From Paraescarpia echinospica (Eukaryota; Annelida; Polychaeta; Sabellida; Siboglinidae), in assembly GCA_020002185.1 (NCBI GenBank), contig CM034534.1:19364075-19428074 (forward strand): DNA of 64,000 nucleotides, given 5' to 3'. The translations under genes were made by a program, and so were the position numbers. Below, in pieces: positions 237-59,577 of the stretch. The notes under the pieces are model-generated. The model was given only the letters and a program-made list of their open reading frames with translations. It ran no database searches and was not told where the DNA came from. Numbering within the stretch: position 1 is the stretch's first letter; every line of letters begins with the position of its first letter.

Positions 237-357
237 GAAAGAGGTGTTGGCCCTCAGTATTGTGCTGGCGGTGGTGTTGCATGTCTTTATTGAGAAACTG
301 CGCAAACTCTATGGGCGAACCAAACCCCCGCTGGAAAGCAGTGAGCCCATTCCGCAG
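237..357 (+). CDS. EIF2AK3: PERK transmembrane exon
   Basis: The acceptor is TTTTCAG and the donor CAG/GTAAAC. The exon starts with the last base of a codon and ends in phase 0. It encodes a single hydrophobic helix (core [14 protein letters not shown]) followed by a basic stop-transfer (EKLRKLYGR) and the tail [10 protein letters not shown]. Only this tail has a counterpart in the chimeric locus (LESVETTAQ); the helix is absent there. Confidence 0.88.
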
Positions 358-22316: not shown

Positions 22317-23674
22317 TCAGCCCCGCTTCATCAAGAAGATAACAGCTGCAAGAGTAACAGCAGCAACAGCCACCATGAACGACAACAGAGTGATGCCTTG
22401 GTTCTCTTCTGCATAACCCTCTTCTGAGTGGCCAGTATTGTCTTTGACAAGACTGACATCACAGTGGTCAGTATCGCCTTGGGCAAGACTGATATCACAC
22501 TGGCTGTCTTGGACATCAGATGGACTCGGGTGGATACGACCGAGTTGACCAACATTGTGCAAGACGCTGTGGTCTCCAGACACATCTGACAAAACTGTGG
22601 AAGGTTGCATCTTCAAGTGGCCATCTCCACTCGCAGGTGGTGTTTGCGTCAATGAACTGTCCAGCCCACTGCGATGGTCAAGCCTCTCTCCAGCCATGGG
22701 TGGAAAAACACTGCCCACATAACTATCAATGCCACAGCATCGGTCCTCGTTGTCTATCAGATCACTCCTTCTGTTGCTTTCTGTTAGGCTGGACACATTA
22801 TCTGTTTCGACACTATTACACATGCGTGGCTTCATAAGCTCTGTCTCGTCACCACTGCTTCCGTCGTCATCGCTCGACTGCTCATGGGAGTCAAGATCCC
22901 CTTCTTCCTGTCTTGACGTCATAGACACCTCCACTGGTAGGTTTTCTTGTGTGCTCACCAGCGAAGGTTCTGGGGTCGTTTCAATGCGAGCCTTCTGTTC
23001 GGTATCGGCGCAGTCTGAGGGTTCCACAGAGGCAAACGGCAATAGGTCTGCCTCCCATCTCACAGCAGTATGTCCTTGTTCGATATCAACATCAGGTAGT
23101 CCTGATTTTACATCATGCCGCATATCAGGTAGTCCTGATCTTCCATCAGGACTTACGTGAGGTTGTCCTGATTTTCCATCAGGACTTGTGTGAGGTTGTC
23201 CTGATCTTCTGTCAGGACTCATGTCAAGTTGTCCTGACCTTCCATTCAGACTATCAATTTGTCCTGATCTTCTAGCAGGATTTTTATCACGTTGTCCCAA
23301 TAATCCATTAGGATTTATGTCACCTTGTCCTGATCTTTCACCAGGACTAACATCAAGTTGTCCTGACCTTGTATCAGGACTCACGAGAGGTTGTCCTGAA
23401 CTCCCGAGAGTACCAAATTCACTGAAACTGGCACTGGCATCAGCAGTGAGAGAACTATCACTTGTGTCCAGGCTCGACATGTCATCGTCGGTCAAACTGT
23501 CACCTGACTTGGGGACAGACATGTGACAGTGGTGGCCTACCTGTACATTACAGTTTGTCATCATCATGATTGTGTCACCTTGACCTCTTTCTGCTGAGGT
23601 CGCAGGTGGCATGTCTCCTTGACCTCTCTCCGTCTGTGACCTATCGGGTTGTCTGCCGCATGCAATTTCGAGGG
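22317..23674 (-). CDS. MAVS: MAVS-like exon 3 (disordered region and tail anchor)
   Basis: The 1358-nt exon starts after TTGTTCCAG with [13 protein letters not shown]. An upstream in-frame ATG at 23736-23738 is intronic because the homologous acceptor at the other locus falls at the same place. The exon holds [13 protein letters not shown] motifs, a Ser/Asp stretch, about ten 11-aa repeats, an acidic region (SSDDDGSSGDETE) and the C-terminal hydrophobic helix ending LMKRG. Confidence 0.83.
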
Positions 23675-26600: not shown

Positions 26601-26861
26601 AATGCCCAATGATTAAATCCAGTTAATAAATTTAATGTTTATTACAACAACATTGACAACTACCCATTAACACACATTGTTAGTGTAACATACAAAAACT
26701 GTTTATTACAAGTGTTACAAACATACTTGATCTGAAGTTGAAAGGCTGGGTAGATGTGGCAGTATCTCCATTGGGTTAATCTTTTTAACAATGACTGGGT
26801 AGTACTTGCACAATACTCTATTAAATCCAGTCGCAAAGTCCCATATTCTCCAATCGTCCAT
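22317..26861 (-). CDS. MAVS: MAVS-like CARD adaptor with C-terminal tail anchor
   Basis: Three exons (26727-26861, 24782-24932, 22317-23674) give 546 residues. MAVS is the adaptor on the mitochondrial outer membrane that relays RIG-I-like receptor activation by nucleating CARD filaments. Residues 1-95 form a CARD with the MAVS-like signature MEILPHLPSL, an acidic/Asp-Gln turn, KLKECL, FIEALQEVG and LADGM. A long hydrophilic Ser/Asp/Gly-rich region with 11-residue repeats follows. Residues 523-542 (core FMVAVAAVTLAAVIFL) are a C-terminal hydrophobic helix, and only MKRG follows, as expected for a mitochondrial tail anchor. Length and plan match vertebrate MAVS (about 540 aa). The start is the first ATG of exon 1; the related copy has an in-frame stop just upstream of the same ATG. 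Another CARD/tail-anchor protein is possible; no catalytic domain is seen. Confidence 0.82.
23094..23405 (-). repeat. 33-bp coding minisatellite in MAVS-like exon 3
   Basis: About ten units of 33 bp encode degenerate 11-residue repeats such as RSGQPHTSPDG and KSGQPHVSPDG. The frame is kept throughout. The fusion in the other locus cuts just before this array. Confidence 0.85.
23675..24781 (-). other. MAVS-like intron 2 with minisatellite precursor
   Basis: 24000-24210 contains two or three diverged units (AGATACTCTTACAATGTTACAAAGTTAGAGTA) of the sequence that is expanded to about 24 copies in the chimera's equivalent intron. Confidence 0.8.
24782..24932 (-). CDS. MAVS: MAVS-like exon 2 (CARD second half)
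   Basis: The 151-nt exon spans ATTGTAG to GAAG/GTAAAG. It codes CARD helices 3-6 ([29 protein letters not shown]) and leaves one base that completes the first codon of exon 3. Confidence 0.83.
24933..26726 (-). other. MAVS-like intron 1
   Basis: No exon was found. The motif TAACGCGAGTCA recurs at about 26218, 26231 and 26582 and, degraded, at 26410, in an AT-rich unassigned repeat. 25430-25560 aligns with 54680-54800 of the chimera's intron. Confidence 0.5.
26727..26861 (-). CDS. MAVS: MAVS-like exon 1 (CARD first half)
   Basis: The coding part has 45 codons, from MDDWRIWDF to STSDQ, ending in phase 0 at CAA/GTATGT. A good acceptor (TTTGTGTTGCAG) precedes it by about 40 bases, so a non-coding 5' exon probably lies further upstream; it was not located. 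Confidence 0.8.
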
Positions 26862-26979
26862 TCCGTGCCACGCTTTCAAGATTGCGTCGGAAGTAACGTC
26901 TGCAACACAAATTGTATTCATTTACAGACAACTGTTCGGGGCCGTCCATAAAGTATGTCACGTTAAATTTTGTAGAGAA

Positions 26980-39500: not shown

Positions 39501-39695
39501 TCACAAGTGGTCCTTGTCTACAGAAGTGTGGCTGGATGGTGAGTCTGTGTGATGACGGGATGACGGGGTGATGCGCAGTCTCTTTACAGCCGCACGCACC
39601 TCTTCGAAGTCGAAGAGTATCGCGTGAGATCGGATGTCCTTCGTGTCGGGGCGTTCACCGGGTTTGTGAGAGAGCAGCGGCTTCAGGAATGTACA
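39501..39695 (-). CDS. Chimera terminal exon
   Basis: The 195-nt exon contains [15 protein letters not shown] and the tail TSVDKDHL followed by TGA. As in PERK, its acceptor abuts the CATGTCA minisatellite. Confidence 0.9.
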   Translation of the reverse strand, partial: CTFLKPLLSHKPGERPDTKDIRSHAILFDFEEVRAAVKRLRITPSSRHHTDSPSSHTSVDKDHL

Positions 39696-42600
39696 CTGCA
39701 ATGACAGGTGACACAGATGACAAGCTCTGTCGTGACAACACGGATGACATTGTGTTGTGACATGACATGAATGACAGGCTCTGTCATGACAACACGGATG
39801 ACATTGTGTCGTGACATGACACGGATGATAGGCTCTGTCGTCACAACACAGATGACATTGCATTGTTACATGACATGAATGACAGGCTCTGTCGTGACAA
39901 TAAAGATGACATTGTGTTGTGATATGACACAAATGACAGGCTGTGTCGTGATAACATGGATGACATTGTGTTGTGACATGACACGAATGACAAGCTCTGT
40001 CATGACAACATGGGTGACATTGTATATCGTGACATGACACAAGTGACAGGCTGCGTCATGATAACATGAATGACATTGTATCATGACATGACATCAATGA
40101 CAACCTCTGTTGAGGCAATATAGATGACATTGAGTCGTGACATGCCACAGATGACAGGCTCTGTCATGACATGTGGATGACATTGTGTCGTGACATGACA
40201 CGAATGACAGGCTGTCATGATAATGCAGATGTCACAGTGGTATGACATGACATGACACGAATGACAGGCACTGTTCAGACAATACAGACGACATGGCATC
40301 TTGATATGACGTCAACAACAGGTTATATTAACATCATAAATATGATGTGATGAAATACTAAAGATGACTACATTGACATGAACACGATACAATGTCACAA
40401 AATCATACTTTACACTAATGACAGTCACTTAATTATAAATATTTCCTAAAATGTGACAGTGTCACCAATGACAGATTAAACAACTCACCATAAATCTGAG
40501 ACAATGTCACACTATGACAAACTACATCACAAAGATGACACAATGTCACAACATGACAAGCAATGACAGATTAGACAAACATGTTGTAAATTTGACAGGA
40601 ATTACATTTCTAACATGGGTTTAACAACCAGCAAGGTTTATCATGATGATAAAATTTACGATATCTCTTCAGAAATATACGTTTTCAGTTAGTCATTACA
40701 TTACGTTTAGACCATCAGTTGGGCTTTGAAACGTAGCAAAACGAAAATTATGACGAAATAATGCAAAACAGTTGGTTAGTACATGTCTGATGTATGCAGA
40801 TGGATATATAGTAAATGGTTACACCAAATATTTAATACATTTGTCGTAATTGACATTTGAAGAATTTTAGGCTGGAGCAAGGCAATTCAACACCGTTACC
40901 ATGCCTATGAAAAGATACGTTGCAAAAAGTGCATTAAATATCATTAATACGTCATTATAACTATTCTGATTGCTTTCTCTAGCGTGCATTAATGTTTATA
41001 TTAACCTAATTATCATTATTTTTACTTTTTTATGTGACAGACAGATTTTAGGAGGTATTTTCTGAAATCTTTCATGCCAAGATAACGGTGTCGATAGTAA
41101 CAGTGTTGAAGAAATTTGATATTTTCCGTGTATTACGCAAAACACGGATTTCTATTATTACTATAGCCGTTGTAACTATATAAAGATGTTTCACTGTGGC
41201 CTATCTCAGGATATTTTTTATTTTGACAAATAGCCTGTTACGTACTATACATTGGTAACAGTGTGGACATTAAATAAACGTTATTATGGTAAAATAATTA
41301 CATTTCTTACAGTTACACATCAAACGCAGTGTTTATTATGGCATGGTGAGGTTATGCAAATAGCAGCAGCACATAAAGAATGAAGACACTTTACTTGTGA
41401 GCTTCGAGTGGATACAAACTAAATCAATAACAGTGTTGAGAATATTTATGAACAAATGTAAAGTGGTCATATCATATTCCAAACCCTTAAAGTAGAAAAT
41501 CTAACAACAGTCAAATATAGCTTATACATTAAAGTAATGGAAACCTATTACACAAGATACCTTATTAATTTGCTTACATGTGCATTTTCAATGAGAAATG
41601 TCAACTCAGTCTGTTATGGCCTACCGGGTTTAATGGATGCCCCTTAGCAAAAACATTATTTTGCAAACCTCACCCATTTGCTTGTGCCTATATTGCAAAG
41701 AACATGTTGACATTCTGCAATATATCTTGTTTTCACATCACAAAGATAACTTTTAGGGACATTCCTATACTTCAGACAGCAACTGGTGGTCTAAAAGTGC
41801 AATGACTGTCGTTCCAATAATTAGTTCAAATATGTACCTTGGAAACTATTTCAATCTTGTTCCAACTTTGTTACCCTTCACAATATAACAAGTTTACAGT
41901 TACTGATTGTTATTTTTTAAATTTACTTATTTTGGAAATATATTCAGTACAAAGGTCATTCTGGCATACCTCAGTTGGTAGTTCCTGCAGAAATCTTTCT
42001 GGGAACTTGAGCAGTTTTACATCAAGCATCGTCTCAACTCTTTCCATCTCGGTGTCGAAAGGACAGAAAAGTTCGAAGAAGATCATTCCAAGGGCAAAGA
42101 TATCCACCTTGTGTGTATAACTGTCTCCTGCAATCTGGAATACACGGCTCTCTTTTAACTGGCCTTATCTGACATAACATGCAATGTTTTAAGACTAAAA
42201 TACTGTCAAACAATATATGAAATCATAAAATAAAATCATACCTGTGCGGTCGTCCATTTAATCTAAAGACTATGATGTGACTTAGTTAATGAGAGCAATA
42301 GATACGCTAGTCAGCAGCAGTGTATACCACATTCACCCAGTATTGACTAATCTATACATTACTATGCTACCTTTTGGGGGAAGTCTGACAGAATCTTCTC
42401 CCAGGTGCTGAGGTCCACTCTGTGTTAATTCACTACCTTGGACCACCAGCCTTTGATCTACCAATTGGTGATGTGTTAAAACACAACATGGTATTTGTTT
42501 TTAGTTGTGTACTTATGTGAACTTGGTAAAAGAAAGTAATGGAAATAAATGCTCAACTTGTTTTCTTGTTCCACGAATGGGGTGTAAATGTGTTAAAGAT

Positions 42601-43759
42601 AGAAATCAGATTGTTTGCGACTGCTTGAGTGGTAAGAACCTTTAACCTACAGGAAATAAAAACCTTCCTCTTCTTCCGGGAGGTCACGGGTGAACCCCTG
42701 ACAGTTTGGCACCCCAGAGGCAAAGAGTCTAGGAGAAAAAGGGGTCACACCCCTCGTGAAATGTCACATTTTAGTTAACTCCTCGTGAAATGTATTTTAA
42801 TGAACTGACATAATATCTTAAATTGACCAAATTGATATGGGTATTATGCCTATATGTTAAAAGAAAGTCAAATATGATATAGCAGTTGATTTGCATAATC
42901 GTAACCATGATAACCAGTTAACTATTTGACATTCTTACGGGGGTAGTTTTGTGGAACATCTGATGGAAAATTTAAATCATGTATATGGGTGAATATTTGA
43001 CAAATGGACAAAAAGCTGTTGCCAACATTCAACAGTTTTTAACGCATTGAGTTTGCATATGTGTTTTAGTTATGTATGTTATGTATTACCACATCTCTCT
43101 ATTATCATTGGATATTTTTTTCTTTTGGAAATTTTTCTGGTGCAAAGAAAAAAAAAACCTACACTGGTCTCCCAACTGAAATTGTGTGTTGCTAATGACA
43201 ATTACCAGGTATTATTCTGCTTATATGTAATGATTAAAAATATGGAAACAAAATTACTGTCAGGAACTCTCCTGCTAATATATGGGCATAGCTTAGGAAA
43301 CAAACTTTGATTTTGATTTTTTTAACAAATAAAATCCCAGTTGTACTCTTGGTTTGTGTCATAAGAGAACAGTATCTATATCTGCCAAGCTGAAGCGACA
43401 TATGTTCTAAAAATCACCAGAATGTCAATGTGTGTTCAGTGTGCATGAAAGATCCTACCAAAAAACAGTTGCGAGTTATGAAATGTTTCAGTCTTGTGGA
43501 CAAAATGTAATCCGAAAAGTCATTAGTGTCACATGTCATTAGTAAACGTGACTCTAATGACTTGTTTTGTGACATTAATGAAAAATTTTGTTTTATATTA
43601 ACTCAAAGATTTGTAATTCTGCTAAATAAGTGTATCTAGATGTGCACTTGCTGGACACGTGCTCTCAATTCCAAATGGCAAAGCATCAGCAGCAAATATC
43701 CAGGCAAAATTAATCTGATGTTAAAATGGTGCAAGTTATGTCAAACTGTGACGCTAATG

Positions 43760-43848
<89 letters not shown>

Positions 43849-46800
43849 TGAATGCGAGTGTGGTGTGTGTGTGGCGTATGTGGTGTGGAGTGTGGTGTGT
43901 GTCTGGCGTGTGTGGTGTGTGTGGAGTGTGATGTGTGTGGAGTGTGTGTGTCTGAATGCACGTCTGGCATGTGTGGTGTGTGTGTGGAGTGTGACAAGTG
44001 TGTGGTGTGTGTGTGTGGAGTGTGGTGTGTGTGTGTGGAGTGTGGTGTGTGTGGAGTGTGGTGTGTGTGTGGAGTATGGTGTGTGTGTGGAGTGTGGTGT
44101 GTGTGTGTGTGGTGTGTGTGTGGAGTGTGGTGTGTGTGGTGTGTGTGTGGTGTGTGTGTGTGTGTGTGAAGTGTGGTGTGTGTGTGGTGTGTGTGTGGAG
44201 TGTGTGTGGAGTGTGGTGTGTGTGTGGGGTGTGTTGTGTGGGTGTGTGTCTAAATGCGTGTACTAGATAATGTTTAGTATATAAAACTGTCCATGTCCAT
44301 GTCTTATTCTAAAAACTGGTATCCTGGGAGTATAAAACTTTGCACATGTTGATATCTCTTTCTGATTCTGGGGAAACTAGAAGTATTTGGGACATAATTC
44401 ACTGATGAACCTGCCTCATCAGATGTGGGACTCTGACTTTGCTCATCTATGCTGATTTTATAATCTCTAAATAAATTAAGAGACTAAAACATTTTGTCCA
44501 GTTGTTAAATAGTCACCCATATATCCATTTTTATTATAACAGATAATGTATTAAGTTGTGCAGTGAAGGAGTTTGGTTAAAAAGAGTAATACTTTTGATA
44601 AACAATATTTTTAACATTATGTTACGTTTTTACAATTGATAAACAAACACTAAAAATCATATTTGTGCCAAAGTTGTTCCTCTCTATCCACCCTAAATAT
44701 TCCATTTCACAGCATACTATAATATTTGTTAGACAAAATAAAAAAAATGAAATATATGAATTCATATTTCCATGGCACGTACCACAAAACTGTACCATTA
44801 TATTGTCCAAGAATTATCTGGTTACCATAGCTACCATAATGCAGACTGATAATTACATAAAACCTGACATACTGACTTAATACTCTGCAAATTTGCTCAA
44901 GCTAGGACAAGTAGTTTTTAAGATATGACACGTAATTAAAATACGACATGTCACGATGAGCCTCTAACCAGTGTGTACCTGTTCCGGACTCATATAGAGT
45001 TTTGTGCCCACTTGGTTGGTGTGACAACGGGGGGTCTGTGAGGTGATTCGGTCCCCCCAGATGTCACTATCGCCCTCCATGACGTGTTCCTCACTCGCGG
45101 TCACAAGGCCAAAGTCACCAACCTTCACTGCGCCGTCCAGGGAGAAGAAAATGTTGGACGGCTGAAAAACACAACAATTTTATTATTTCTAAATATAATT
45201 AACTTGCATAATTAATGGTTTATTGTAACTCAATGCAAGTCATAATTATAATATATGTATGTATGTACAATGGGTCCAGTGATACTTTGTATTACACTGT
45301 CTGCATAGCCTGCTCGGCTTTTCTCACATGCCTGACCAGGAATCAACTCTGGCCGCTGGGAGCAAGATCCAGTGGGTTAGAGATAGAGACCACCACCCTG
45401 TGAGTCTACGACAGGTTACACATTTACCCCCTGTGTGGGATCTTTTATTTCCCCTGGCGTAGACACCAGATAGAAGGGACCAACGGCTTTCAGTCTCTTC
45501 CGAATGTCCCAGACAACATGAGGTGAACAAAATTGTCTAAGTTTTGAAATGGTAGCAGGTGGAATCAAATCTTCCGCACGACCACCGCTCCCCACTCTTA
45601 TCATAGTTACATAAATATCACTGGTAGGAGAGAATAATGTGGTCAAAAACCTATAAACAGAATTGACATACTACTGCTTTATCTTAATGTCACTTTACCA
45701 ATACAACTACAGTACCAGTCAGACCTGTGTTCAATCCACTTTTATCAATTCCAATTCAATTCCAAGCATCAGTTCTAATTAAATTCAACATATACGTACA
45801 AAAAATGATCAATTCAGTTCAATTCATTTTATTCAATTCAATTCAAATTCAAATCAGCAACAATAGCTGTTTTGTTGTAACTTATTACGCTTCTGCACAT
45901 TGATGTGCAATGAAACCCCAGGGAAAATCCATTGAAGCAAACAATAGCCCTTTAATTTATTTAATTAAGCACTAATAGCACTTACACTAACAGGTTTTAG
46001 TTTAGGCCATTGTCCTTTGTTGGCACCCATATCTCAGGCTGTCCCAGCATAAGCCTGGAAGTTCATAATAAAATGCCTGCTTTATTCTCAGAAGAGACAA
46101 GGCTAAGCAGGCCTTGTGCCAAGTACTGCAATGTGGGTGTTATGAAGGGTTACGTTGATTCAAGTCAGCCAACCTGCACCAGTATCTACTATAGCACCAC
46201 CTCCCAACTTGGCTAAAGAATAAAGGGGATGCTGAACTCTGTATATTGGCAAATGCTAATTCATCCCCTCTGCAAACATAATTTTGGTCTCTGGTGGTCA
46301 ATTTTTTTATCAATTCAATTCAAATTCAATTAAGAATTGAATCCTAGTCTGATTACAGTTTGCAGTTTTTTCCAGAAAGTATTTAGAATTTCTGAAAATG
46401 TTAAGATGATTGGGACTTTGTTCCAGATTTTTGATGCCGCTTTAGCAAAAGCATGCTAGCCCAGGTTGAGCTTAGTTCTGGGAATAAAAAACTGTTAGGT
46501 GATAGGAGATCAGAGGTACCTCGGGATATATGAGACAAGCCAAACAGCACGTCCAAATATATGACATAGTCTCAAAGGTAAGTTCTTATATAGCGCAATA
46601 TCCAGTCCGCTGGCAGACTTGTTCAATCGAACACCATCTCATCTTCTCTGGGAAGCATTCAGCAATGCTGCAATTAATGCGTGAAGACAATTCGTACACA
46701 AATATCCACCACTGTCTATAGCCAGGTACTCGTTCATACAGCTGAGTGAACTGAAGCAATGTAGAGTAAACGAACTTGCCCAAGGTTCGACACCGTCGTG

Positions 46801-49800
46801 CAGGATTGGAACCCGAGTTCTCTCAGTCGAGAGTCCAGAGCTCTTACCACTGCGCTACTGCGCTCCACCTCAGGTAGCACCGAGACCACAAAGGTATCTG
46901 ACCTTGGTTACTGACTTTCACTGTTATTTATATGTCCATCGTGTTTTTGAAATGTGTGTCACAAAAGTGTTCATGTATCAATGTATACAAATGTATTTAT
47001 GTTGTAGTTACGGCCAGGAGAGGAGTAGAGGCTGAGAGTGAAAGACAGAGGGGAATGGAGACGGTTGGTGGAGAGAGCAGCCCTGACAGACAGGGAAACA
47101 AGAGATGAACAATAATGTCTGACCCAAAAACCCTACCTTGAGATCTCGATGCATCAGTCCGCATTCATGGACATAGTCGACGGCCGACAAGATCTGATCA
47201 AACATGTCAAGGATCTGTTTGCGATCACGATTTAGCATGTTGGCACAGAGCCAGTCCTTCAAACTTTCCTGCTGACACAGCTGCATTTGTATGTAGAGCA
47301 GTAGGCGGGGAACATACTTGGTGGCAGCACCTGTCTCTTTCTCACCGGACTGTTTACTGGTGACACCGTGAGTATCACCACTACCCCCGCGTCGACCGAT
47401 ACACGTTTGTCTGTCTGTCACATTTAGTCTGTCAGGTATATGACTCATATCCAGCTTCTTGTGATTATTACTGTCTTCTTTCTGCTGCGAATCTTGGAAG
47501 ACTATATCGAATGAGTCTGTCGCATCCTTAATCGCGATGTTTTGACTTGAAGTCGTGTCACGTGATTTGCTGAGAAGTGAGTCATCTGTTTCCTCGCTGT
47601 AGTGACTCCCGGTTGACACACCGACACTGACAGAGAACCCTGTGTCACTACGAGTGTTCGACGCCACTGAACTACTCATGTCTGTGAAGCCACCTGGTGG
47701 GTTTTGCACACAGTGCCCCCTGGTGGTTGACTGTGGGTTCGGCTCGGTCGTGTAGTCTGCCGTCGAGAACATGTCGTGGTACTGCTGGTCATGCTGCTCC
47801 TGCCAACCTGGTGGTGGGCTCTCGAACCACGACTGGTAGTAGCGAACGATTCCCGTGTGTTCAAGCTTCGCAAGGGCCTTGACCTCTCGCATGACCTTCT
47901 GTTTCGCTCGTTCGCTGCGCACAACACACAACATAGAATACATAATTTTTTCAAAGATACAGTGGGTCTATTTACATCATTGCAATTTATAACAGGCAAA
48001 ACTATTTATTTATAAAAGATTCTGGTTCTGAAATTGCTCCTTAAGTTGTGCTGCTCCACATAAGGCCAAATCAATCTTATACAAAACATAAAAATTCAGC
48101 AGCACACATGCCGTGCAGTAAACATGTACTGCACTTACACAAATAAATGAAATTGTAAAATAAATCCGTAGTTGAAATGGCATAACTGTAAAAAGTTTGA
48201 ACATTTCATAAATGTGGATTGAAAAGTAACTACCCCGGGGCGTAAATGATTTTTGTGAATGGACTCATCCCTGTTCTTGATACATTAAACATGACTTAAA
48301 TAGAACAGGAGAATTGGCATGTCACAAACCCATTTTGCATGTCGAACTAAATAAATTAATAAAATAAATAAGTCTAAAAACTCCACTGTATGCCCTATGC
48401 AAATACAACTTTGGAAAATTTGGTAGGTAATTACGTGTAACTGATACGTACAGTTGGTATAAATTTTTTACAAAGTTTTGACCAGATCCATTAAAAAATA
48501 CGTTAATAGTTTTTCTAATGATTTCACAAAAATTGAATAACCCATTTGCACAAATAGGTTGGCTTATCACAGTGGATTGAGTACGCAGGTAGGTTCATGT
48601 TTGTGGGAAATTACTCTGAAATGAAACTGGCAAAAAATCTAACTTCGATGGAAGTTTTAAAAAACATTTCCCACTACCGATTGTGTGTGCCACAGTTTGT
48701 TTTTGTGCGTCATATAATATTTTACACATTTGAAGAATTTGTGTCATAAGAGGAAAGACGTTCCACATTAACTGCGTAGAGACGTGAAGAAGAATGTACC
48801 AGTTATTGAGTAGACACTGTAATGACTTAGATCTTATGTCTTCACTGAGCTTTCAATTTAATCCGACATTTGTAGAAATTAAATTACAACAAATAATGGA
48901 TACAACAGCCAAGAGTAACAAGACTCAACTTCTCAAGTCAAATATTGCCTCGGAGATCATTGTCACAGTGTCCGATCCTGATAGAGGTGTGTACGCTTAA
49001 TACGGCATGTATGTTTAATAGACTGAATACATACCTGTTATTGAGTGAGATACGTTTGATGGCGTAAAGACAGTCGTCCATCTTGTTGCGGGCCTCAAAC
49101 ACCACCCCAAACCCCCCTTTGCCTAGAAACGCCTGGGGGTCAAAGTCAGTGAAGAACCTGAAATGCAAAACCCCCTGTGAGTTGACAATAATAATAAGGT
49201 AACTTCTACTGCGCTTACATCCTTGGAAAACGAGGTCAGAGGTGCATCATTTTCACAACATGTAAAACATCCGATCCAGTGACTAAAAGTTGAGCAACAG
49301 TTGTAGGCTAAAAAAGTAAAAGGTAAGTGTCCAGTCCTCAGGATTGCTCAAAGCACTTCACACTTTACTCCCTGGCAGACCTGTTCAATCAAACACCATC
49401 TCGAATTCTCTGGGAAGCATCCAGCCATACTGCAATTAATATGCGAGGATTATTCGTACACAAATATCCACCATTGTCTATAGCCAGGTACTAATTCATA
49501 TAGCTGGGTGAACATTCTTAGTATCATCTCTGAATAAACAGTGACTAAATCTTGCAGAATACTGCTATTAAAAAAAGCATTAAAGGGAGTCAGTTTTTTC
49601 CTCTACCCAGAATTAGACTTAACAGCTCTTGCGTCTATAGATGCATGAGGCAGTCAAAGCGCGCCATCCAGATCTGTCGCTTGCTAATGTTCTGACGTCG
49701 CTCCAACTTTTGTTGACCAGCTGTGGGTCGTGGAATTAGCCAGAGTAGTAAATAATAACAGGAAGTCTGCTGTGACAAACCTGAGAAAATGGGAAATTGT

Positions 49801-52800
49801 TGAACTCGGCCCGCCTCGGTGATATTGCCAATAAAGCTTGTTTTTAAATTTGGTGTTTTATTTACCATTTGAACATACTCCGGGGTCGCATCCTTCAAAT
49901 TGCGAATGTTGTTACGACTTAAAACAATTTGATGGGTGATAAACATTCAACGTATTTATTATACTCATTAGAACAGTACTGTTAATTAGTACATGAAAAG
50001 CTTCCATATGGTATCATCGTTACTCTGCTCAATTCTATTACACAATATTCACAACATGCAATGACATCTGGTGGCTAACTATTAAACTATGGTTGTGTGC
50101 AAGTTTCCTGTTTTGCGGGTGTCACACATGTTGTACACTGGAAGCTGTGTATCAGTTTAGTTTGTACAATATTTATTAATAGGTGACTGTTATGACAGTG
50201 ATCAAGTTTGGACTTGTACTAGCATTCTCTCTCACTCTTTGAATCAACATTACAGCAGTTGGCAGTTGAAGAATAAAAGCATGCTAAGGACAATTTGTAT
50301 AAAAGATGTATTTTAATACAAACTCTTATCGTGTTGTGTTTTTGTATCCCTGATTGGTTTTAGAAAACTTCCAATTAAACAAATATTACACAGTGATTAA
50401 ATGTGTAACTGCCATGAACCTCATTTCTCAACCATACGAGGCAAGACAGAAGACAAGACATGGCTCCTACTCTACTAACAACCTCACACAAGGACACGGT
50501 TGATCGCACCATTCAACAGGAAACAAAAGTTCTTGTACCTCGACTGAAATTCCTTCTCATTTGTCTTTTCCGCTGTCTCCGCCTGTTTCGATTCCACCGA
50601 CGTTTCCGATTCCTGTAGGAAAGATGTGAATTTCAGTGCTATTAGTAACACACCTACCTGCCCCTAAAACTTCCTGTCATCATAGGCAGATACAGAGGGG
50701 GCTGGGGGGCATGTGCCCCCCAAGACCGCCTGCGCTAGAGTGACGTGACTCCTAAACCTTTGGAATGTGCCCCTGTTACAACTTACGTGTCCTGTAGACT
50801 TATGGAATGTGCCCCCGTTTAGGCGAGTCTCAAGGGGGTGCAATTGGAGGTTTTTGGTGAGCTTCCGAAATTGTGAACATCTTCATGAACAATTATCAAT
50901 GTTGCCACCCCCTCCCCCCATCTTTCAATGACATGACCCGACAGCGGAGTCGTGCTGAAGCCCCAGCTCAGCACACCCAATATTAATTTGGTTCGGCCGC
51001 CAGTGGAAATTGTTTGGCAAGCCTCAAGAGGGTACAATTGGAGGTTTTGGGCCCTTCTAGACTACCATCTACGGATGTTGCACACTATTGCCTTTTATGA
51101 TGTCCATATAGCACTCTAGTTTGCAACATAACAGCAATCACATTTTTAGCTACCTTTAACCAACTCATTATCATTACATAATGCTATTACCTGGGCAGTT
51201 GTCTCAACACTTTCCAATTGTGTCCTACGGGGTTGTCTGCTACCATTTTTACCGGAACTAGCACTGACATCTGCACTGCGAGAACTGTCATTTGCGTCCA
51301 CGGTTGACATGTCACCATCGGTCCGTCTGTCACTTGACTTGGTGACAGACATGTGACTGTGGGCACCAATCTGTAGGTTCTTTACAACACAGTGGGTCAT
51401 GGTAACCCTTGTGTCTCCTTGACCAACTTCCGTCAAGGTTGTATGTGGCATATCTCCTTGACCTCTTTCTGCCAAGGTCGTGGGTGGCATGTCTCCTTGA
51501 CCTCTCTCCATCTGTGACCTATGGGGTTGTCTGCCGCATGCAATTTCGAGGTCTAGAAAATGATCAGAAGCCAGGGTTAGTGCATTGTTTACACAATAAT
51601 TCTTACACCCACGTAACAAACCATCAATTACATTTTTACCACCATGGTATGTTGATTTTAAACTGGTTCACAGTGGCGCCATGTGCAGAGTTGATCACCA
51701 CTCCATTCTCTCCCGCTAGAATGGGACAGCATATCACGAACATGTAAGTAAATAACTACTATTTTTTTTAATACAAAGTCAAAAGATAGCATATTGTGAA
51801 ACAAGTATCATTGTGGGTTTTTTAAATGTCATCAACTGGTAGGTCAGAGGCCATTGTTCCAAGGAAGCGAATGAACATAGAAAGAGAGGACGGCATCTGG
51901 GAGGAGATACTATATATACTGCCATAATGCTACAAAATTAGAGTATTATTATACAGACTGGCACATGAGAGGACGGCACCTGGGAGGAGATACTCTTACA
52001 ATGTTACAAAGTTAGAGTATTAATATACAGACTGGCATATGAGAGGATGGCACCTGGGAGGAGATACTCTTACAATGTTACAAAGTTAGAGTATTAATAT
52101 ACATACTGGCATATGAGAGGATGGCACCTGGGAGGAGATACTCTTACAATGTTACAAAGTTAGAGTATTGATATAGACTGGCATATGAGAGAATGGCACC
52201 CGGGAGGAGATACTCTTACAATGTTACAAAGTTAGAGTATTAATATACATACTGGCATATGAGAGAATGGCACCCGGGAGGAGATACTCTTACAATGTTA
52301 CAAAGTTAGAGTATTAATATACAGACTGGCATATGAGAGGATGGCATCTGGGAGGAGATACTCTTACAATGTTACAAAGTTAGAGTATTAATATACAGAC
52401 TGGCATATGAGAGGATGGCACCTGGGAGGAGATACTCTTACAATGTTACAAAGTTAGAGTATTGATATAGACTGGCATATGAGAGAATGGCACCCGGGAG
52501 GAGATACTCTTACAATGTTACAAAGTTAGAGTATTAATATAGACTGGCATATGAGAGGATGGCATCTGGGAGGAGATACTCTTACAATGTTACAAAGTTA
52601 GAGTATTAATATACAGACTGGCATATGAGAGGACGGCACCTGGGTGGAAATACTCTTACAATGTTACAAAGTTAGAGTATTAATATACAGACTGGCATAT
52701 GAGAGGATGGCACCTGGGAGGAGATACTCTTACGATGTTACAAAGTTAGAGTATTAATATACAGACTGGCATATGAGAGGATGACATATGGGAGGAGATA

Positions 52801-55336
52801 CTCTTACAATGTTACAAAGTTAGAGTATTAATATACATACTGGCATATGAGAGGATGGCACCTGGGAGGAGATACTCTTACAATGTTACAAAGTTAGAGT
52901 ATTAATATACATACTGGCATATGAGAGGATGGCACCTGGGAGGAGACACTCTTACAATGTTACAAAGTTAGAGTATTGATATAGACTGGCATATGAGAGA
53001 ATGGCACCCGGGAGGAGATACTCTTACAATGTTACAAAGTTAGAGTATTAATATACAGACTGGCATATGAGAGGATGGCATCTGGGAGGAGATACTCTTA
53101 CAATGTTACAAAGTTAGAGTATTAATATAGACTGGCATATGAGAGGATGGCATCTGGGAGGAGATACTCTTACAATGTTACAAAGTTAGAGTATTAATAT
53201 ACAGACTGGCATATGAGAGGACGGCACCTGGGTGGAAATACTCTTACAATGTTACAAAGTTAGAGTATTAATATACAGACTGGCATATGAGAGGATGGCA
53301 CCTGGGAGGAGATACTCTTACAATGTTACAAAGTTAGAGTATTAATATACAGACTGGCATATGAGAGGATGACATATGGGAGGAGATACTCTTACAATGT
53401 TACAAAGTTAGAGTATTAATATAGACTGGCATATGAGAGGATGGCACCTGGGAGGAGATACTCTTACAATGTTACAAAGTTAGAGTATCAATATACAGAC
53501 TGGCATATGAGAGGATCGCACCCAGGAGGAGATACTCTTACAATGTTACAAAGTTAGAGTATCAATATACAGACTGGCATATGAGAGGATCGCACCCAGG
53601 AGGAGATACTCTTACAATGTTACAAAGTTAGAGTATTAATATAATATACAGACTGGCATATGCATGTATCAATTTTCTGCAAAAAATATTGAGATTACTT
53701 ATGCGAACTTATGCCAAAAGTACCACTGGGATGAAACTGTGAAAGACGCATTTAAAGTTTGATCGAGTTAACACGGTAAATAGGGCACAAACAATACTAC
53801 TGAACAGTGAAGTAACCACTTACTTGTGTATATATATATATATATATATGTTAGTTATGAATAGAGGCCAGTGGCAATAACACATAATGTGGCCCTGGAG
53901 TAACAATTAGCATATATAGAAGAGAAATCTAGTGATGGTTTTTTAAGATAATTTGTTTTTGGAGGGATGTACTTTCAGAATTATTGCGCAAAATCATGAA
54001 TGCAGGCACTACAACACCTACACCATAGTTTATCAATATAATGGTCACTTAAAGTATTGACCAGTTGTTTACATGATTTTAGAAAAATGTGCCAGTGTAT
54101 TGAACTGAAATGAATGTGAACGTACAACTAAATAAATTTCTGTTGCAGTTTTAATGTAGCTAATAAATTAACTCTACCTTCCACCATTTTATCAGCCAAC
54201 TCTGTAAGCCCTACTTCGTGGAGGGCATCTATAAACTCTTTCGTCTTTCCTTTCCGTAGCAGACATTCCTTGAGTTTATACACAGCGCTTCGTGCCCCGC
54301 GATTGTTTTGTTCATATATAATCTCTTCCTACAACATGCATGTAAGTATTTGTCTTTATATCTGCACACATTCTTAGTTCAAACAAAGCAAACAAACTAC
54401 ATTCATCTTGTCAAAACAACATAGATTAAAACCTGCTCACAGCGGACACCATTGGGATAGCACAATACGTCCATTATGGCCACATTACCACTATGGACAG
54501 ATTGTGGACAATAATGTATACAAACTAGTTTGTTATTCAGGACTTTTAAAAAGTGTCCATTGTAGAAAGGTTTCCTTATGGACAGGTGTGTGAAAAGCCA
54601 GGTTTCACTGTATTTAAATTTGCCAGTAAGTAAAAAAAATCATGCAAAACTAAATAGTCCTTTTCTCAGTTTTGTTAAAGCATCCTGGTTTCAAGCATAA
54701 CAAATATTCCTGTGTCAATTTGACTGGAAAACATTCTAGCAAGGCAACCATGGAATGTGACATGGTTTGGCACTCTCCTAAAATTGATATTGTTTTTCAC
54801 GTGACTTTTTGTATAAATTTTGTTAAAATAAATTACTAATTGACAGACTGATATTCAATACAATGACAACGGATTCATGTAGAAAACACGCAATTATGCC
54901 AACATCTCCAGGGCTATTTAATTAATTAGTTAATTAATACATCAATTAGGCATCTCGATAGAAAACATTCACATAGGCACTAACAAAGTAACATATGAAA
55001 GACAAGTCATGATAACTTAAATTTAAGACAAATTCAATAACTTACAATAAAATTAGTTAAATAAAATAAATAAATAAAGTATGCAAGAGGACCTTAAACA
55101 TTTATCACAACACCACTGAGAACAATATCTGAACATCCATATTATTGTTGTATGGTTGGAAAACTGTATATTACAAATGTCATAAAAACACATACTTCAT
55201 CGGAAGTTGATCGTAATAGGCTGGATATGTATGGAAGTATCTCCTTTGGGTTAATATGCTTAACCATGTCCGGGTAATACTTGTACAATACTCTTTTAAA
55301 TCCGGTCCCAAAATCCCATGTTCTCCAATCGGCCAT
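39501..55336 (-). CDS. Chimeric MAVS-type CARD / PERK eIF2-alpha kinase
   Basis: Nine exons (55196-55336, 54178-54328, 51191-51552, 50539-50612, 49035-49157, 47137-47914, 44979-45161, 41970-42134, 39501-39695) total 2172 nt = 723 residues plus stop, with every phase compatible. Residues 1-97 are a CARD about 70% identical by hand count to the MAVS-like CARD at 24782-26861. Residues 98 to about 205 are a hydrophilic linker matching the start of MAVS exon 3. Residues from about 206 are [13 protein letters not shown] (end of the transmembrane exon), juxtamembrane linker, glycine loop 255-260, ATP lysine 277, HRDLK 539-543, DFG 559-561, activation threonine 596, full C-lobe. The PERK transmembrane helix and the MAVS tail anchor are both missing, so a cytosolic CARD-kinase is predicted. 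Role by inference: an eIF2-alpha kinase switched by CARD oligomerisation. No transcript evidence is available here. Confidence 0.88.
39700..40580. repeat. CATGTCA minisatellite in chimera's last intron
   Basis: About fifteen degenerate units with ATGACAGGCTCTGTC, GTGACATGACA and GATGACATTGTGT. This is the reverse-complement counterpart of the array at 15495-17508, without the hAT insertion. Confidence 0.87.
40581..41969. other. Chimera intron remainder
   Basis: AT-rich. No additional exon or clear repeat was recognised. Confidence 0.4.
41970..42134 (-). CDS. Chimera exon 8 (C-lobe)
   Basis: The 165-nt exon contains [18 protein letters not shown] and ends LPTE/GTATGC. It is open throughout. 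Confidence 0.9.
42135..43640. other. Chimera intron with stray copy of VNTR precursor
   Basis: 42365-42480 on the minus strand (CACCAATTGGTAGATCAAAGG, CCTGGGAGAAGATTCT) matches the repeat from which the MAVS-intron minisatellite arose (23960-24060, 51830-51910). So that sequence is a dispersed repeat. Confidence 0.6.
43760..44256. repeat. (TG)n microsatellite with GTGTGGAGTGTGGT variants
   Basis: About 85 bp of pure TG is followed by about 400 bp of degenerate TG/TGGAG repeats, inside a chimera intron. Confidence 0.95.
44979..45161 (-). CDS. Chimera exon 7 (DFG, activation loop)
   Basis: The 183-nt exon contains [10 protein letters not shown] and [11 protein letters not shown]. It has four substitutions in 61 codons relative to PERK, none at catalytic positions. 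Confidence 0.92.
45162..47136. other. Chimera intron with AATTC-rich tract and SINE
   Basis: 45740-46340 is rich in CAATTCAATTCAAATTC-type simple repeats. 45300-45650 is an unassigned repeat-like segment. Confidence 0.5.
46565..46875 (-). mobile_element. SINE family B, most complete copy
   Basis: On the minus strand: GGAGCGCAGTAGCGCAGTGG (A-box region), CGGGTTCCAATCCTGC (B-box region), the body CCTTGGGCAAGTTCGTTTAC and AGCTGTATGAACGAGTACC, then the 3' part CAGAGAAGATGAGATGGTGT. The tRNA-like cloverleaf spacing is clear, but the tail marks it as a SINE rather than a tRNA gene. Confidence 0.82.
47137..47914 (-). CDS. Chimera exon 6 (alpha-C, insert, HRDLK)
   Basis: The 778-nt exon contains [14 protein letters not shown], a shortened insert loop and HRDLK. 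It is 33 nt shorter than the PERK copy (in-frame loss of [11 protein letters not shown]) and has many scattered substitutions, but no stop or frameshift. Confidence 0.92.
49035..49157 (-). CDS. Chimera exon 5 (glycine loop, ATP lysine)
   Basis: The 123-nt exon contains [10 protein letters not shown] and YAIKRI. It is almost identical to 10660-10782, and the flanking intron bases are also alignable. Confidence 0.93.
49318..49515 (-). mobile_element. SINE family B, partial copy
   Basis: It carries the 3' part and body (AACACCATCTCGAATTCTCTG, CCACCATTGTCTATAGCCAG) without the tRNA head. It lies in the chimera intron 49158-50538. Confidence 0.7.
49516..50538. other. Chimera intron 49158-50538, remainder
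   Basis: The exon-proximal part matches the PERK intron (CCTGTTGAATGGT, GATCAACCG, GTGAGGTTGTTAGTAGAGTAGG). No gene is seen. Confidence 0.5.
50539..50612 (-). CDS. Chimera exon 4 (PERK juxtamembrane)
   Basis: The 74-nt exon begins ESETSVESK and ends EKEFQS, between TTCCTACAG and GAG/GTACAA. It corresponds to 8290-8363 and keeps its phase. Confidence 0.9.
50613..51190. other. Chimera intron 3 (PERK-derived)
   Basis: Both ends match the ends of PERK intron 358-8289. At 578 bp this is close to the ancestral size before the nested hAT/LINE insertion. An imperfect GAGTCTCAAGGGGGTGCAATTGGAGG repeat occurs twice (50825 and 51020). Confidence 0.65.
51191..51552 (-). CDS. Chimera exon 3: MAVS linker fused to PERK transmembrane-exon tail
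   Basis: The 362-nt exon spans TTTTCTAG to CCCAG/GTAATA. It opens with [13 protein letters not shown] like MAVS exon 3 and follows that exon through the Ser/Asp stretch to GSRQP. It then switches to the PERK tail LESVETTAQ (compare LESSEPIPQ at 237-357). The intron after it (AATGATAATGAGT, GGTAGCTAAAAATG) is the PERK intron seen at 361-420. Without this splice the frame ends 14 codons later at 51146. The switch point is about 51220-51236. Confidence 0.88.
51888..53665. repeat. 74-bp VNTR (about 24 units) in chimera intron
   Basis: Tandem units (GGCACCTGGGAGGAGATACT, CTTACAATGTTACAAAGTTA, GAGTATTAATATACAGACTG, GCATATGAGAG) of 70-74 bp with very low divergence. Variant units (ACGGCACCTGGGTGGAAATA; GATGACATATGGG) recur in the same order about 587 bp apart, so there is a higher-order repeat of about eight units. 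Confidence 0.95.
53666..54177. other. Chimera intron 2 remainder
   Basis: A TA-dinucleotide run is at 53829-53850. The stretch next to exon 2 matches the MAVS-like intron. No gene is seen. Confidence 0.5.
54178..54328 (-). CDS. Chimera exon 2 (CARD second half)
   Basis: The 151-nt exon has the same length and phases as the parent's exon 2. It encodes [19 protein letters not shown] and ELADKMVE. About 34 of 50 residues match the parent. Confidence 0.87.
54329..55195. other. Chimera intron 1
   Basis: 54680-54800 aligns with 25430-25560 in the MAVS-like intron (GTTTCAAGCATAACAAA, AACATTCTAGCAAGGCAACC). Confidence 0.6.
55196..55336 (-). CDS. Chimera exon 1 (CARD first half)
   Basis: There are 47 codons from [10 protein letters not shown] to RSTSDE, ending in phase 0 at GAA/GTATGT. 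An in-frame TAA lies two codons before the ATG, which fixes the start. The acceptor TTTGTGTTACAG upstream again implies a non-coding 5' exon. It has two more codons than the parent exon and matches it at 32 of 45 aligned residues. Confidence 0.87.
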
Positions 55337-56476
55337 TCCGTGTTACTCTTTCAAGATCACATCAGAAGTAATGTCTCTGTAACACAAATTATAAACAAAT
55401 GTTAGGGGCCATCCATAAAGTATGTATCGTTAAAAGTTGACTTTTTTATTGATTTTTTATTTTAGTCCAACCTGCATAGATGACACCATACTAAATCCTA
55501 GTGCCGCGGTGCTACCTGCGGTGACGACAACGACCGCTGTACTGCCTATAGTATAGGTGTCACAACAAACTGTGCAGAAAATGTACAAAAAAACGCGACC
55601 AAAAGGGACCTTAAAAAGTGTGATGGATGGAGTTAAAAGTTTAGTTGAATATCAGGACAATATTTTTATATTATATTTCATTCAGATTGGAAATAAAAAT
55701 TAAGGCTAATTTCACTTAGTCTTCATTTTTTAAGTATGCTTCAGGCAAGATTATGCTTTAAGCAAATTACGGGTAGCTAGACCTTATATACTATGCCGGG
55801 TTAGCCTATGGCTAGACCTCTGATTTCTATGGACAGCCAGCCTACCTCTAACTGCTAAGGCTAAGCTGAGGTGCCAACCTAATGGGGTCAGCACACTGAT
55901 AGTTTTCCCACTGGCGACCATGTTAACGTTTTGTCTGATTACAAGAAAACGTGACCTAGAAAATGTATTAAACTTCTCACCTGCCGTTATCATCATCTCA
56001 TTGACATGCTGGTCGAGTTTAGTCAAAATCTAATATTTGTAGCTCTTACAAAATGCCTGTATGTATGACACCCGTCAATATTTATAAATGGATGCAAGCA
56101 GTAATCCAGCTAAAGCCAGTTTAGTAAAGGGTCAACTAGCCAAATTGCTGCCAAATACCCTTCCGCTTAGTAAAATCAGCTAAAAATACACCATTTTACT
56201 GTCAACAGCTTCTACAATCACATTTAGAAATCTGACTACTCAAGTGCACTTGTGTCAGAGCAGGTGAATATTGTAAAAAATAATTTCCCCAAAATATACT
56301 GCACTGTTACGTAACCAAGCAGGAAGTCTAATAGAGGGTGTCTAATGACGTCAGCACTATGCGTGCACACAACCCCCAGCGGCCATATTGGAGTACAAGC
56401 GAACCGTTCGCAACCGCCCCGCATTGTGTGTTCACTGAGCCGCTAAATTGTTTTCTTTGTCGTTGCACCGCGCAGT
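55337..56476. other. Chimera 5' flank and transposon 5' end
   Basis: The first about 90 bp match the 5' flank of the MAVS-like gene (GGGGCCATCCATAAAGTATGT). After that the sequence belongs to the DNA transposon or is unassigned. The transposon end was not delimited. Confidence 0.4.
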
Positions 56477-58961: not shown

Positions 58962-59577
58962 CTAGTCATATGGAACGATGGGCCCATTCAAGTTTGTAAG
59001 TGCACAGCAGACAGTGGCTATTTTGTCAATCGTGGTGATTCCTGTTCCATCATTGACGAAGAGAAAGTCAATTGGCACTGTTTCTCCCAGAAAGGTGTAC
59101 TTCTGACGAAGCAGGCCAATAACACGCTCAACATGGATTCGCAGATGAGCGAGTTTTCGTGATCGTTCAAGCTCGACTGCTGGCATCTGGCTCTTCCCCT
59201 TTGTGAAGGCAGGCATTTTGATGGTTGCCATCATCAGTCCCACACTGTCATTCACATCAAACCCTCTGTCGGCCATCACAACGTCACCTGGGAGGAGGTG
59301 GTCGAGGAAACCACAGTGTTCGGTGAGGTACTTGTCACTGACTCGGCCAGCCCAAGCTCTCGACAAGAAGGAAATGGTCCCATGTGGCGTAATTCCTATG
59401 AGGAACTTCACCATATTGTGATGCTTGTAGGAAGACCAAGTCAGTGACCTTGCTTCCAGGTTTGATGGTGTTTCGATATACACCTCGAAACAGTCAATGA
59501 TTACCACAACTTTTGACTCGAGATAACGCCGGAACTCCATCGGCATCGTCTTCCTCAACTGTTGACAGTGGGACAGG
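58962..59577 (-). pseudogene. ISL2EU transposase, catalytic (3') part
   Basis: DDE motifs: [11 protein letters not shown] (first D), [12 protein letters not shown] (second D), [18 protein letters not shown] (E). Also [17 protein letters not shown] and [17 protein letters not shown]. It ends [13 protein letters not shown] with a stop at 58962. The 5' side runs into the LINE at about 59577. Confidence 0.87.

What the first reader, a model, noticed from the sequence alone, without database searches (positions are those of the whole stretch)
39501..55336. In-frame fusion of a MAVS-type CARD to the PERK kinase domain: a candidate CARD-activated eIF2-alpha kinase
Nine exons with compatible phases (141+151+362+74+123+778+183+165+195 = 2172 nt) read CARD, linker, full PERK kinase, stop. 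The MAVS-like and PERK parents are both in the window, so the origin is visible. Every catalytic landmark (glycine loop, ATP lysine, HRDLK, DFG, activation threonine) is kept. Known biology: MAVS CARDs polymerise after RIG-I-like receptor activation; PERK is activated by oligomerisation and phosphorylates eIF2-alpha. Inference: the chimera could turn viral RNA sensing directly into translation arrest, converging on the role of vertebrate PKR by a different route. I know of no described CARD-eIF2-alpha kinase, but I could not search.
Basis: partly seen in the sequence, partly recalled or inferred. Interest (0 to 1): 0.97.

Follow-up and report, generated by a model that had tools for sequence, protein, structure and literature searches.

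The report
Antiviral CARD fused to PERK kinase
In an unnamed animal genome, a gene joins the virus-signalling CARD of a MAVS-like protein in frame to the kinase domain of the stress kinase PERK; the encoded protein would likely let virus sensing shut down protein synthesis directly, a wiring I found in no database or paper that I searched.

Summary
Residues 14-95 are a CARD_2 domain (E 6.5e-13); the C-terminal part is a PERK-type kinase (best solved match EIF2AK3, E 9e-97) with its catalytic landmarks.

The break lies inside exon 3 (51241-51216): sequence before it matches the MAVS-like gene; the exon's last codons, splice donor and following intron match PERK's exon just behind its membrane segment. 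So CARD and PERK parts share one exon. The PERK parent has luminal exons just outside the window.

In the 1.08-Gb assembly I found two loci for this CARD, two for this kinase, and exons of a RIG-I-type receptor. dS at the two ends is about 0.4. The frame stayed open.

I found no transcript, and no CARD-eIF2alpha kinase elsewhere. A CARD-gated eIF2alpha kinase is the best reading; activity is untested.

The parts
55196..55336 (-). chimera exon 1: start codon, first half of CARD (residues 1-47)
   Evidence: including 83% nt identity to MAVS-like exon 1 over 119 nt
55337..55434 (-). 5' leader shared with the MAVS-like gene, with a possible 5'UTR acceptor site
54178..54328 (-). chimera exon 2: second half of CARD (48-97)
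51191..51552 (-). chimera exon 3: MAVS-derived linker (98 to ~202) joined to PERK juxtamembrane (from ~210), with PERK's splice donor
51216..51241 (-). fusion breakpoint interval: MAVS homology ends at 51241, PERK homology starts at 51216
51128..51190 (-). start of intron 3, homologous to the PERK intron after its membrane exon (window 358-433 +)
   Evidence: E 1.6e-7 over exon end and intron together
50539..50612 (-). chimera exon 4: PERK juxtamembrane
49035..49157 (-). chimera exon 5: kinase N-lobe (glycine loop, ATP lysine)
47137..47914 (-). chimera exon 6: rest of N-lobe, PERK-type insert loop, C-lobe up to HRDLK
44979..45161 (-). chimera exon 7: DFG, activation loop, SPEQ
41970..42134 (-). 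chimera exon 8: C-lobe with alphaG (TEMERV)
39501..39695 (-). chimera exon 9: end of C-lobe, tail, stop
22317..23674 (-). MAVS-like parent exon 3: linker and C-terminal membrane segment
24782..24932 (-). MAVS-like parent exon 2 (CARD)
26727..26861 (-). MAVS-like parent exon 1 (CARD, start codon)
237..357 (+). PERK parent membrane exon
   Evidence: (weak matches, best E 0.003), and position between luminal and kinase exons
8290..8363 (+). PERK parent juxtamembrane exon (counterpart of chimera exon 4)
10660..10782 (+). PERK parent kinase exon (counterpart of exon 5)
11958..12768 (+). PERK parent kinase exon (counterpart of exon 6)
14114..14296 (+). PERK parent kinase exon (counterpart of exon 7)
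15031..15195 (+). PERK parent kinase exon (counterpart of exon 8)
17512..17706 (+). PERK parent last exon with stop (counterpart of exon 9)

Best explanation
The locus holds an open nine-exon gene that joins the CARD of a MAVS-like protein to a complete PERK kinase domain with no strongly hydrophobic membrane segment, predicted to act in the cytosol as an eIF2alpha kinase that is likely switched on when its CARD joins CARD assemblies of the RIG-I/MAVS pathway. Shown here: the join inside exon 3; absence of PERK's luminal sensor and of both parents' membrane segments; intact catalytic, activation-loop and alphaG motifs; an open frame despite divergence from both parents; a MAVS-like gene and exons of a RIG-I-like receptor in the same genome. 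Inferred: it arose by fusion of a duplicated MAVS-like 5' part with a duplicated, inverted PERK 3' part; the MAVS-like 5' end drives its transcription; the CARD is recruited to MAVS or RLR CARD filaments; crowding there drives kinase dimerisation and autophosphorylation; phosphorylated eIF2alpha then stops translation and starts the integrated stress response during viral infection.
For: Gene model and domains. Breakpoint inside exon 3 with PERK's own donor, so CARD and PERK sequence share one exon and one frame. PERK parent with luminal exons at C4:19351460-19363238. Two loci found in 1.08 Gb for this CARD (4 exon matches, 5 candidates scored) and two for this kinase (the 10 matches at 8.5e-18 or better, of 28, all lie in the two loci; next best 3.7e-10; 89 of 121 candidates scored). 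Similar age at both ends: dS CARD 0.41, linker 0.38, exons 8-9 0.42 (Fisher p 0.88). Frame kept: 0 of 5 coding indels frame-breaking against 33 of 44 intronic, in the blocks aligned; a neutral simulation of the chimera branch gave a mean of 9.1 stops, and 0 of 2000 runs had none. Kinase dN/dS 0.28 (0.20-0.38); 0.28 (0.18-0.42) in exons 4, 7, 8 and 9. Of 117 kinase columns at least 95% conserved in 114 PERKs, the chimera alone departs at 1 (L to M), the parent alone at 1, both at 4. Best 19-residue hydropathy of the chimera 1.46 (inside the kinase) against 2.71 for the MAVS-like and 2.32 for the PERK segment. Exons of a RIG-I-like receptor over C4:67458294-67499337: two CARD_2 matches, RIG-I-type helicase (1.3e-24), RIG-I_C-RD (2.9e-34). 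Precedent: an artificial dimerisable domain on PERK (Fv2E-PERK) drives eIF2alpha phosphorylation on ligand addition (PMC2614882, passages).
Against: No transcript was found: the search of 5.8 billion proteins, which includes sources that look like assembled transcripts, listed nothing near identity (top hit 47% over 67% of the query, no listed row above 63%); whether this species is in that set is unknown. CARD dN/dS (0.42, 0.22-0.85) and linker (0.59, 0.34-1.09) do not exclude a relaxed chimera branch, and exons 8-9 alone give 0.34 (0.20-0.57) with 7% of bootstraps at 0.5 or above. Exons 5-6 are unusually similar to PERK (dS 0.15 against 0.42, p 0.0003), which suggests gene conversion, so part of the kinase's integrity may be borrowed. 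The indel contrast depends on gap costs: with cheap gaps blastn split the exonic gaps, and 14 of 17 exonic against 96 of 121 intronic gaps were not multiples of three, although the net frame is intact. Of 64 aligned kinase differences, 11 fall on the chimera, 5 on the parent and 48 could not be assigned. In oyster, MAVS without its membrane segment no longer bound RIG-I CARDs (PMC5557890, passages); the chimera lacks that segment too. Kinase activity, substrate and CARD assembly are untested.
Confidence: 0.62

Rival explanations
1. Young chimeric pseudogene: the fusion exists in DNA but makes no functional protein.
For: No transcript found; CARD and linker dN/dS 0.42 and 0.59; exons 5-6 appear homogenised with PERK; the chimera branch is drawn longer than the PERK parent's in the kinase tree.
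Against: 723 residues stay open over segments with dS 0.08-0.44 to the parents; 0 of 5 coding indels break frame against 33 of 44 in introns, and 0 of 2000 neutral runs stayed open; all 16 splice sites are GT-AG; exons 4, 7, 8 and 9 together have dN/dS 0.28, with 0.4% of bootstraps at 0.5 or above.
Confidence: 0.13
2. Decoy or regulator: the fusion protein, or a shorter CARD product, is made but works as a modulator of MAVS or PERK signalling rather than as an eIF2alpha kinase.
For: Proteins that lose the membrane anchors of both parents can act as dominant negatives (recalled); reading on past the exon 3 donor meets a stop after 14 codons, so an unspliced CARD-only product is possible.
Against: The kinase keeps catalytic, activation-loop and alphaG motifs and 112 of 117 PERK-conserved positions, with 4 of the 5 departures shared with its parent; a pure decoy would not need them.
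Confidence: 0.15
3. Assembly artefact: two unrelated loci were joined at exon 3.
For: The region is full of satellites and transposable elements and holds a large inverted duplication.
Against: Next to the join both flanks are only about 70% identical to the parents (71.6% and 69.6%), so the parents themselves cannot have been mis-joined, and no third copy of either part was found in the assembly. The join is in frame, within about 25 nt, and the two ends of the gene are of similar age. The DNA search for other copies of the breakpoint did not complete.
Confidence: 0.05
4. CARD-PERK kinase whose CARD is triggered by something other than RLR/MAVS, for example caspase or NLR-type CARD complexes, so that it serves cell-death or bacterial sensing.
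For: The genome has other CARD exons: 8 CARD_2 matches outside the two window genes, 2 of them in the RIG-I-like receptor; of the other 6, 3 were scanned and score as well or better as PF00619 CARD. The CARD's own best solved match is RIG-I rather than MAVS.
Against: The CARD shares 69% identity with the MAVS-like protein's, and CARDs tend to pair with close kin (recalled).
Confidence: 0.15

Closest known systems
PERK (EIF2AK3)
   Same: Kinase domain including the insert loop, juxtamembrane exon and intron phases; its closest relative is the PERK gene that ends about 22 kb away in inverted orientation.
   Different: No luminal stress sensor and no membrane segment; a CARD and MAVS-derived linker replace them.
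MAVS (oyster CgMAVS and vertebrate MAVS; PMC5557890, passages seen)
   Same: N-terminal RLR/MAVS-class CARD with the same exon phases as the MAVS-like gene beside it.
   Different: No C-terminal membrane segment; a kinase domain replaces the distal linker and anchor. [quoted passage not shown]
PKR and fish PKZ (PMC7137213: start of abstract in a search listing and two passages)
   Same: Same proposed logic: a soluble eIF2alpha kinase with an N-terminal alarm module.
   Different: PKR has dsRNA-binding and PKZ Z-DNA-binding domains that contact nucleic acid; here a CARD would couple to the sensor by protein assembly, and the kinase is PERK-derived.
Fv2E-PERK (laboratory construct; PMC2614882, passages seen)
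   Same: An oligomerisable module on PERK.
   Different: Artificial and drug-driven; here the module is a natural CARD.
RIPK2 and other death-fold kinases (recalled)
   Same: A CARD and a kinase in one protein.
   Different: Different kinase family and domain order, and not eIF2alpha kinases.
Lophotrochozoan RLRs with grafted N-terminal domains (PMC8998645, passages seen)
   Same: Exon-level domain grafting within the RLR pathway.
   Different: There sensors gain N-terminal domains; here an effector kinase gains the CARD.

Membership tests
eIF2alpha kinase family | kinase domain closest to PERK/GCN2/HRI/PKR with catalytic residues intact | tested here: met
   Of the top 19 solved-structure sequences, 17 are named as EIF2AK3, GCN2, EIF2AK1 or the RNA-activated kinase PKR and 2 carry generic kinase names; the 20th is NEK1. 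Landmarks intact.
eIF2alpha kinase family | phosphorylates eIF2alpha at Ser51 | not testable with these tools
   no assay; alphaG (TEMERV) and surroundings align with human PERK
PERK (EIF2AK3) | ER luminal sensor domain | tested here: not met
   absent from the chimera model; present upstream of the + strand parent
PERK (EIF2AK3) | transmembrane segment between sensor and kinase | tested here: not met
   hydropathy maximum 1.46, inside the kinase; the breakpoint lies just after PERK's segment
MAVS | N-terminal CARD of the RLR/MAVS class | tested here: met
   CARD_2 6.5e-13; 69% identity to the CARD of the MAVS-like gene
MAVS | C-terminal membrane anchor | tested here: not met
   absent in the chimera; present in the MAVS-like parent
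MAVS | CARD filament formation | not testable with these tools
   no assay; no structure prediction was requested
PKR | dsRNA-binding domains | tested here: not met
   none among the 11 Pfam families reported at E up to 1

The most novel reading that the evidence does not exclude
This is the first CARD-gated eIF2alpha kinase: an invertebrate made its own PKR-like antiviral kinase by plugging the MAVS CARD into PERK, so that RLR/MAVS assemblies stop translation directly without interferon, TRAF or IRF steps.
Probability: 0.5. Interest if true: 0.95.

Novelty: new variant of a known kind. Interest (0 to 1): 0.88.

Why it matters
Each known eIF2alpha kinase is defined by its sensor (ER luminal, heme, uncharged tRNA, dsRNA, Z-form nucleic acid; partly recalled). 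A CARD would be a new class of input, coupling CARD signalling assemblies to translation arrest. It would be a PKR-like solution from a different kinase and sensor, with both parents and the breakpoint still readable at one locus, so the steps of making a new immune effector can be tested directly.

Tried and rejected
Third copies as a source of misassembly: looked for and not found (the tool scores only its best candidates). Junction by intron-intron shuffling: rejected, because intron 3 begins with PERK intron sequence. The + strand gene as a second chimera: rejected, because a PERK membrane exon and luminal exons precede it. CARD relatives in the protein collection: region searches with the chimera CARD (109 candidates) and the MAVS-like CARD (35 candidates) gave nothing at E up to 10; that search needs shared 5-residue words, so fast-evolving CARDs can be missed. 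CARD profile against the 120 listed PERK hits: no match up to E 100. Only 120 of 3089 hits were listed, from 7993 scored candidates, so lower-ranked fusions could be hidden. TRAF motif scan with recalled motifs: only the loosest, four-residue pattern matched, at 3 places in the MAVS-like protein and 1 in the chimera linker. Rfam on the window: 0 matches. Literature: all ten searches (two returned nothing, 26 and 35 asked about mollusc MAVS and Fv2E-PERK) showed no CARD-eIF2alpha kinase among the listed titles and abstract starts; the library is open-access only and each listing is capped. Of 120 fetched PERKs, the 6 of 900 aa or less were dropped for the conservation count (114 used), and 42 of 120 were used in the tree. 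The output was cut in the middle.
Full report
OBSERVATION. The nine-exon model reads without a stop through 2172 nt (723 residues plus stop), all eight introns are GT-AG, and phases are compatible. Pfam finds CARD_2 at residues 14-95 (6.5e-13, 49 bits against a cut-off of 28.2) and Pkinase (4.1e-46). The kinase's best solved relatives are EIF2AK3/PERK (9.1e-97), then GCN2, EIF2AK1 and PKR. The CARD's best are RIG-I CARDs (4.5e-8); MAVS follows at 0.038, or 2.4e-5 with a two-sequence profile.

PARENTS. A MAVS-like gene on the same strand (exons 26861-26727, 24932-24782, 23674-22317) encodes 547 aa with a CARD_2 domain (1.1e-14) and a hydrophobic segment at residues 525-543. On the + strand, exons 8290-17706 carry an open PERK kinase. 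A membrane exon at 237-357 matches PERK membrane segments weakly (best E 0.003). DNA fetched upstream of the window holds luminal exons (for example E 1.2e-20) at C4:19351460-19363238, so I read this parent as a full PERK; its exons were not joined by a transcript.

BREAKPOINT. Homology between the chimera and MAVS-like loci runs in blocks from 98 bp upstream of the start codon through both introns and exon 3, and ends at 51241. Homology to PERK starts at 51216, covers the last codons of PERK's membrane exon, its splice donor and some 65-75 bp of the next intron (69.6% over 102 columns, E 1.6e-7), and resumes at 50649. The chimera therefore passes from MAVS-like to PERK sequence within one exon, just after PERK's membrane segment. 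Neither parental membrane segment is kept; the chimera's highest 19-residue hydropathy is 1.46.

AGE AND SELECTION. dS is 0.41 for the CARD, 0.38 for the MAVS-derived linker and 0.42 for exons 8-9; CARD plus linker do not differ from exons 8-9 (Fisher p 0.88). Exons 5-6 are lower at 0.15 (p 0.0003 against exons 8-9), which I read as gene conversion between the inverted copies. In the aligned blocks, coding indels are 5, none frame-breaking; intronic indels are 44, 33 frame-breaking. With cheaper gaps the contrast vanishes, 14 of 17 exonic against 96 of 121 intronic gaps not being multiples of three, because one in-frame gap is cut into several; what holds either way is that both frames are open. 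A neutral simulation that mutated the present chimera sequence by half of each segment's dS gave a mean of 9.1 stops, and none of 2000 runs stayed open. Kinase dN/dS is 0.28 (0.20-0.38), exons 4, 7, 8 and 9 together 0.28 (0.18-0.42), exons 8-9 alone 0.34 (0.20-0.57); CARD 0.42 (0.22-0.85) and linker 0.59 (0.34-1.09) are not decisive. Among 117 columns conserved in at least 95% of 114 PERKs, the chimera departs at five, four of them together with its parent.

GENOME CONTEXT. In the whole assembly (1.08 Gb, 3111 contigs) the CARD query matched four exons of two genes, and the kinase query matched 28 places, the 10 strongest being exons of the chimera and PERK and the next 3.7e-10. The assembly also holds exons of a RIG-I-like receptor at C4:67.458-67.499 Mb: two CARD_2 matches, a RIG-I-type helicase and a RIG-I_C-RD domain. 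I treat these as one gene from their order and strand; they were not joined by a transcript.

WIDER SEARCH. The full-length search gave 3089 hits; none of the 120 listed carries CARD_2 in its precomputed domains, and my CARD profile finds none in them. In a midpoint-rooted tree of 44 kinases, printed without support values, chimera and parent are sisters, next to two unnamed proteins and beside nemertean, annelid and mollusc PERKs; the species is not identified. Ten literature searches listed no CARD-eIF2alpha kinase (numbers and limits in Tried and rejected).

MECHANISM. From papers: a drug-dimerised PERK construct suffices for eIF2alpha phosphorylation (PMC2614882, passages), and oyster MAVS interacts with RIG-I CARDs, though only with its membrane segment in place (PMC5557890, passages). 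Recalled: PERK is activated by oligomerisation, and vertebrate MAVS CARDs assemble on RLR CARDs. Inference: the chimera's CARD brings PERK kinase domains together on RLR/MAVS assemblies and stops translation. The oyster result warns that MAVS-anchored filaments, rather than the receptor alone, may be the trigger.

VERDICT. The fusion gene is well supported as DNA and as an open, largely constrained reading frame. CARD-gated eIF2alpha kinase activity is the best explanation but untested, and expression is undocumented here.

Noticed in passing
window 10633-13067 (+) and 46908-49184 (-): The PERK and chimera kinase arms form a large inverted duplication whose middle (exons 5-6) has much lower dS than its ends, suggesting gene conversion between the two copies.
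   Followed up: partly
window 51805-53800 and 24020-24363: A satellite with 72-74 bp spacing in chimera intron 2 has about two dozen units, while the related stretch in MAVS-like intron 2 is only some 350 bp long.
   Followed up: partly
window 39639-40320 and 15500-17500: A satellite with 54-bp spacing sits in the last intron of the chimera, with related sequence in the last intron of PERK.
   Followed up: no
window 2412-6092 (-): A LINE with a 1226-residue open frame (PHD, endonuclease, reverse transcriptase) lies in the PERK intron after the membrane exon.
   Followed up: partly
window 56447-58410 (+) and 58962-59780 (-): A YqaJ/alkaline-exonuclease-like frame followed by a PHD finger, and a DDE_4 transposase, lie on the 5' side of the chimera.
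   Followed up: partly
window 26970-27330 (+): What looks by eye like a Gypsy-type reverse transcriptase fragment begins about where the shared 5' leader of the MAVS-like gene ends (not scanned with Pfam).
   Followed up: no
L010, L011, L012, L013, L015, L018: Six further CARD exons in the genome, three of them clustered at C1:4.706-4.733 Mb; L010, L011 and L018 were scanned and score as well or better as PF00619 CARD.
   Followed up: partly
G000 C4:67458294-67499337 (L009, L014, L019-L022): Exons of a RIG-I-like receptor with two CARD_2 matches, DECH helicase and RIG-I_C-RD, on the same contig as the chimera.
   Followed up: yes
window 43760-44260: Long GT-rich microsatellite in chimera intron 7.
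   Followed up: no
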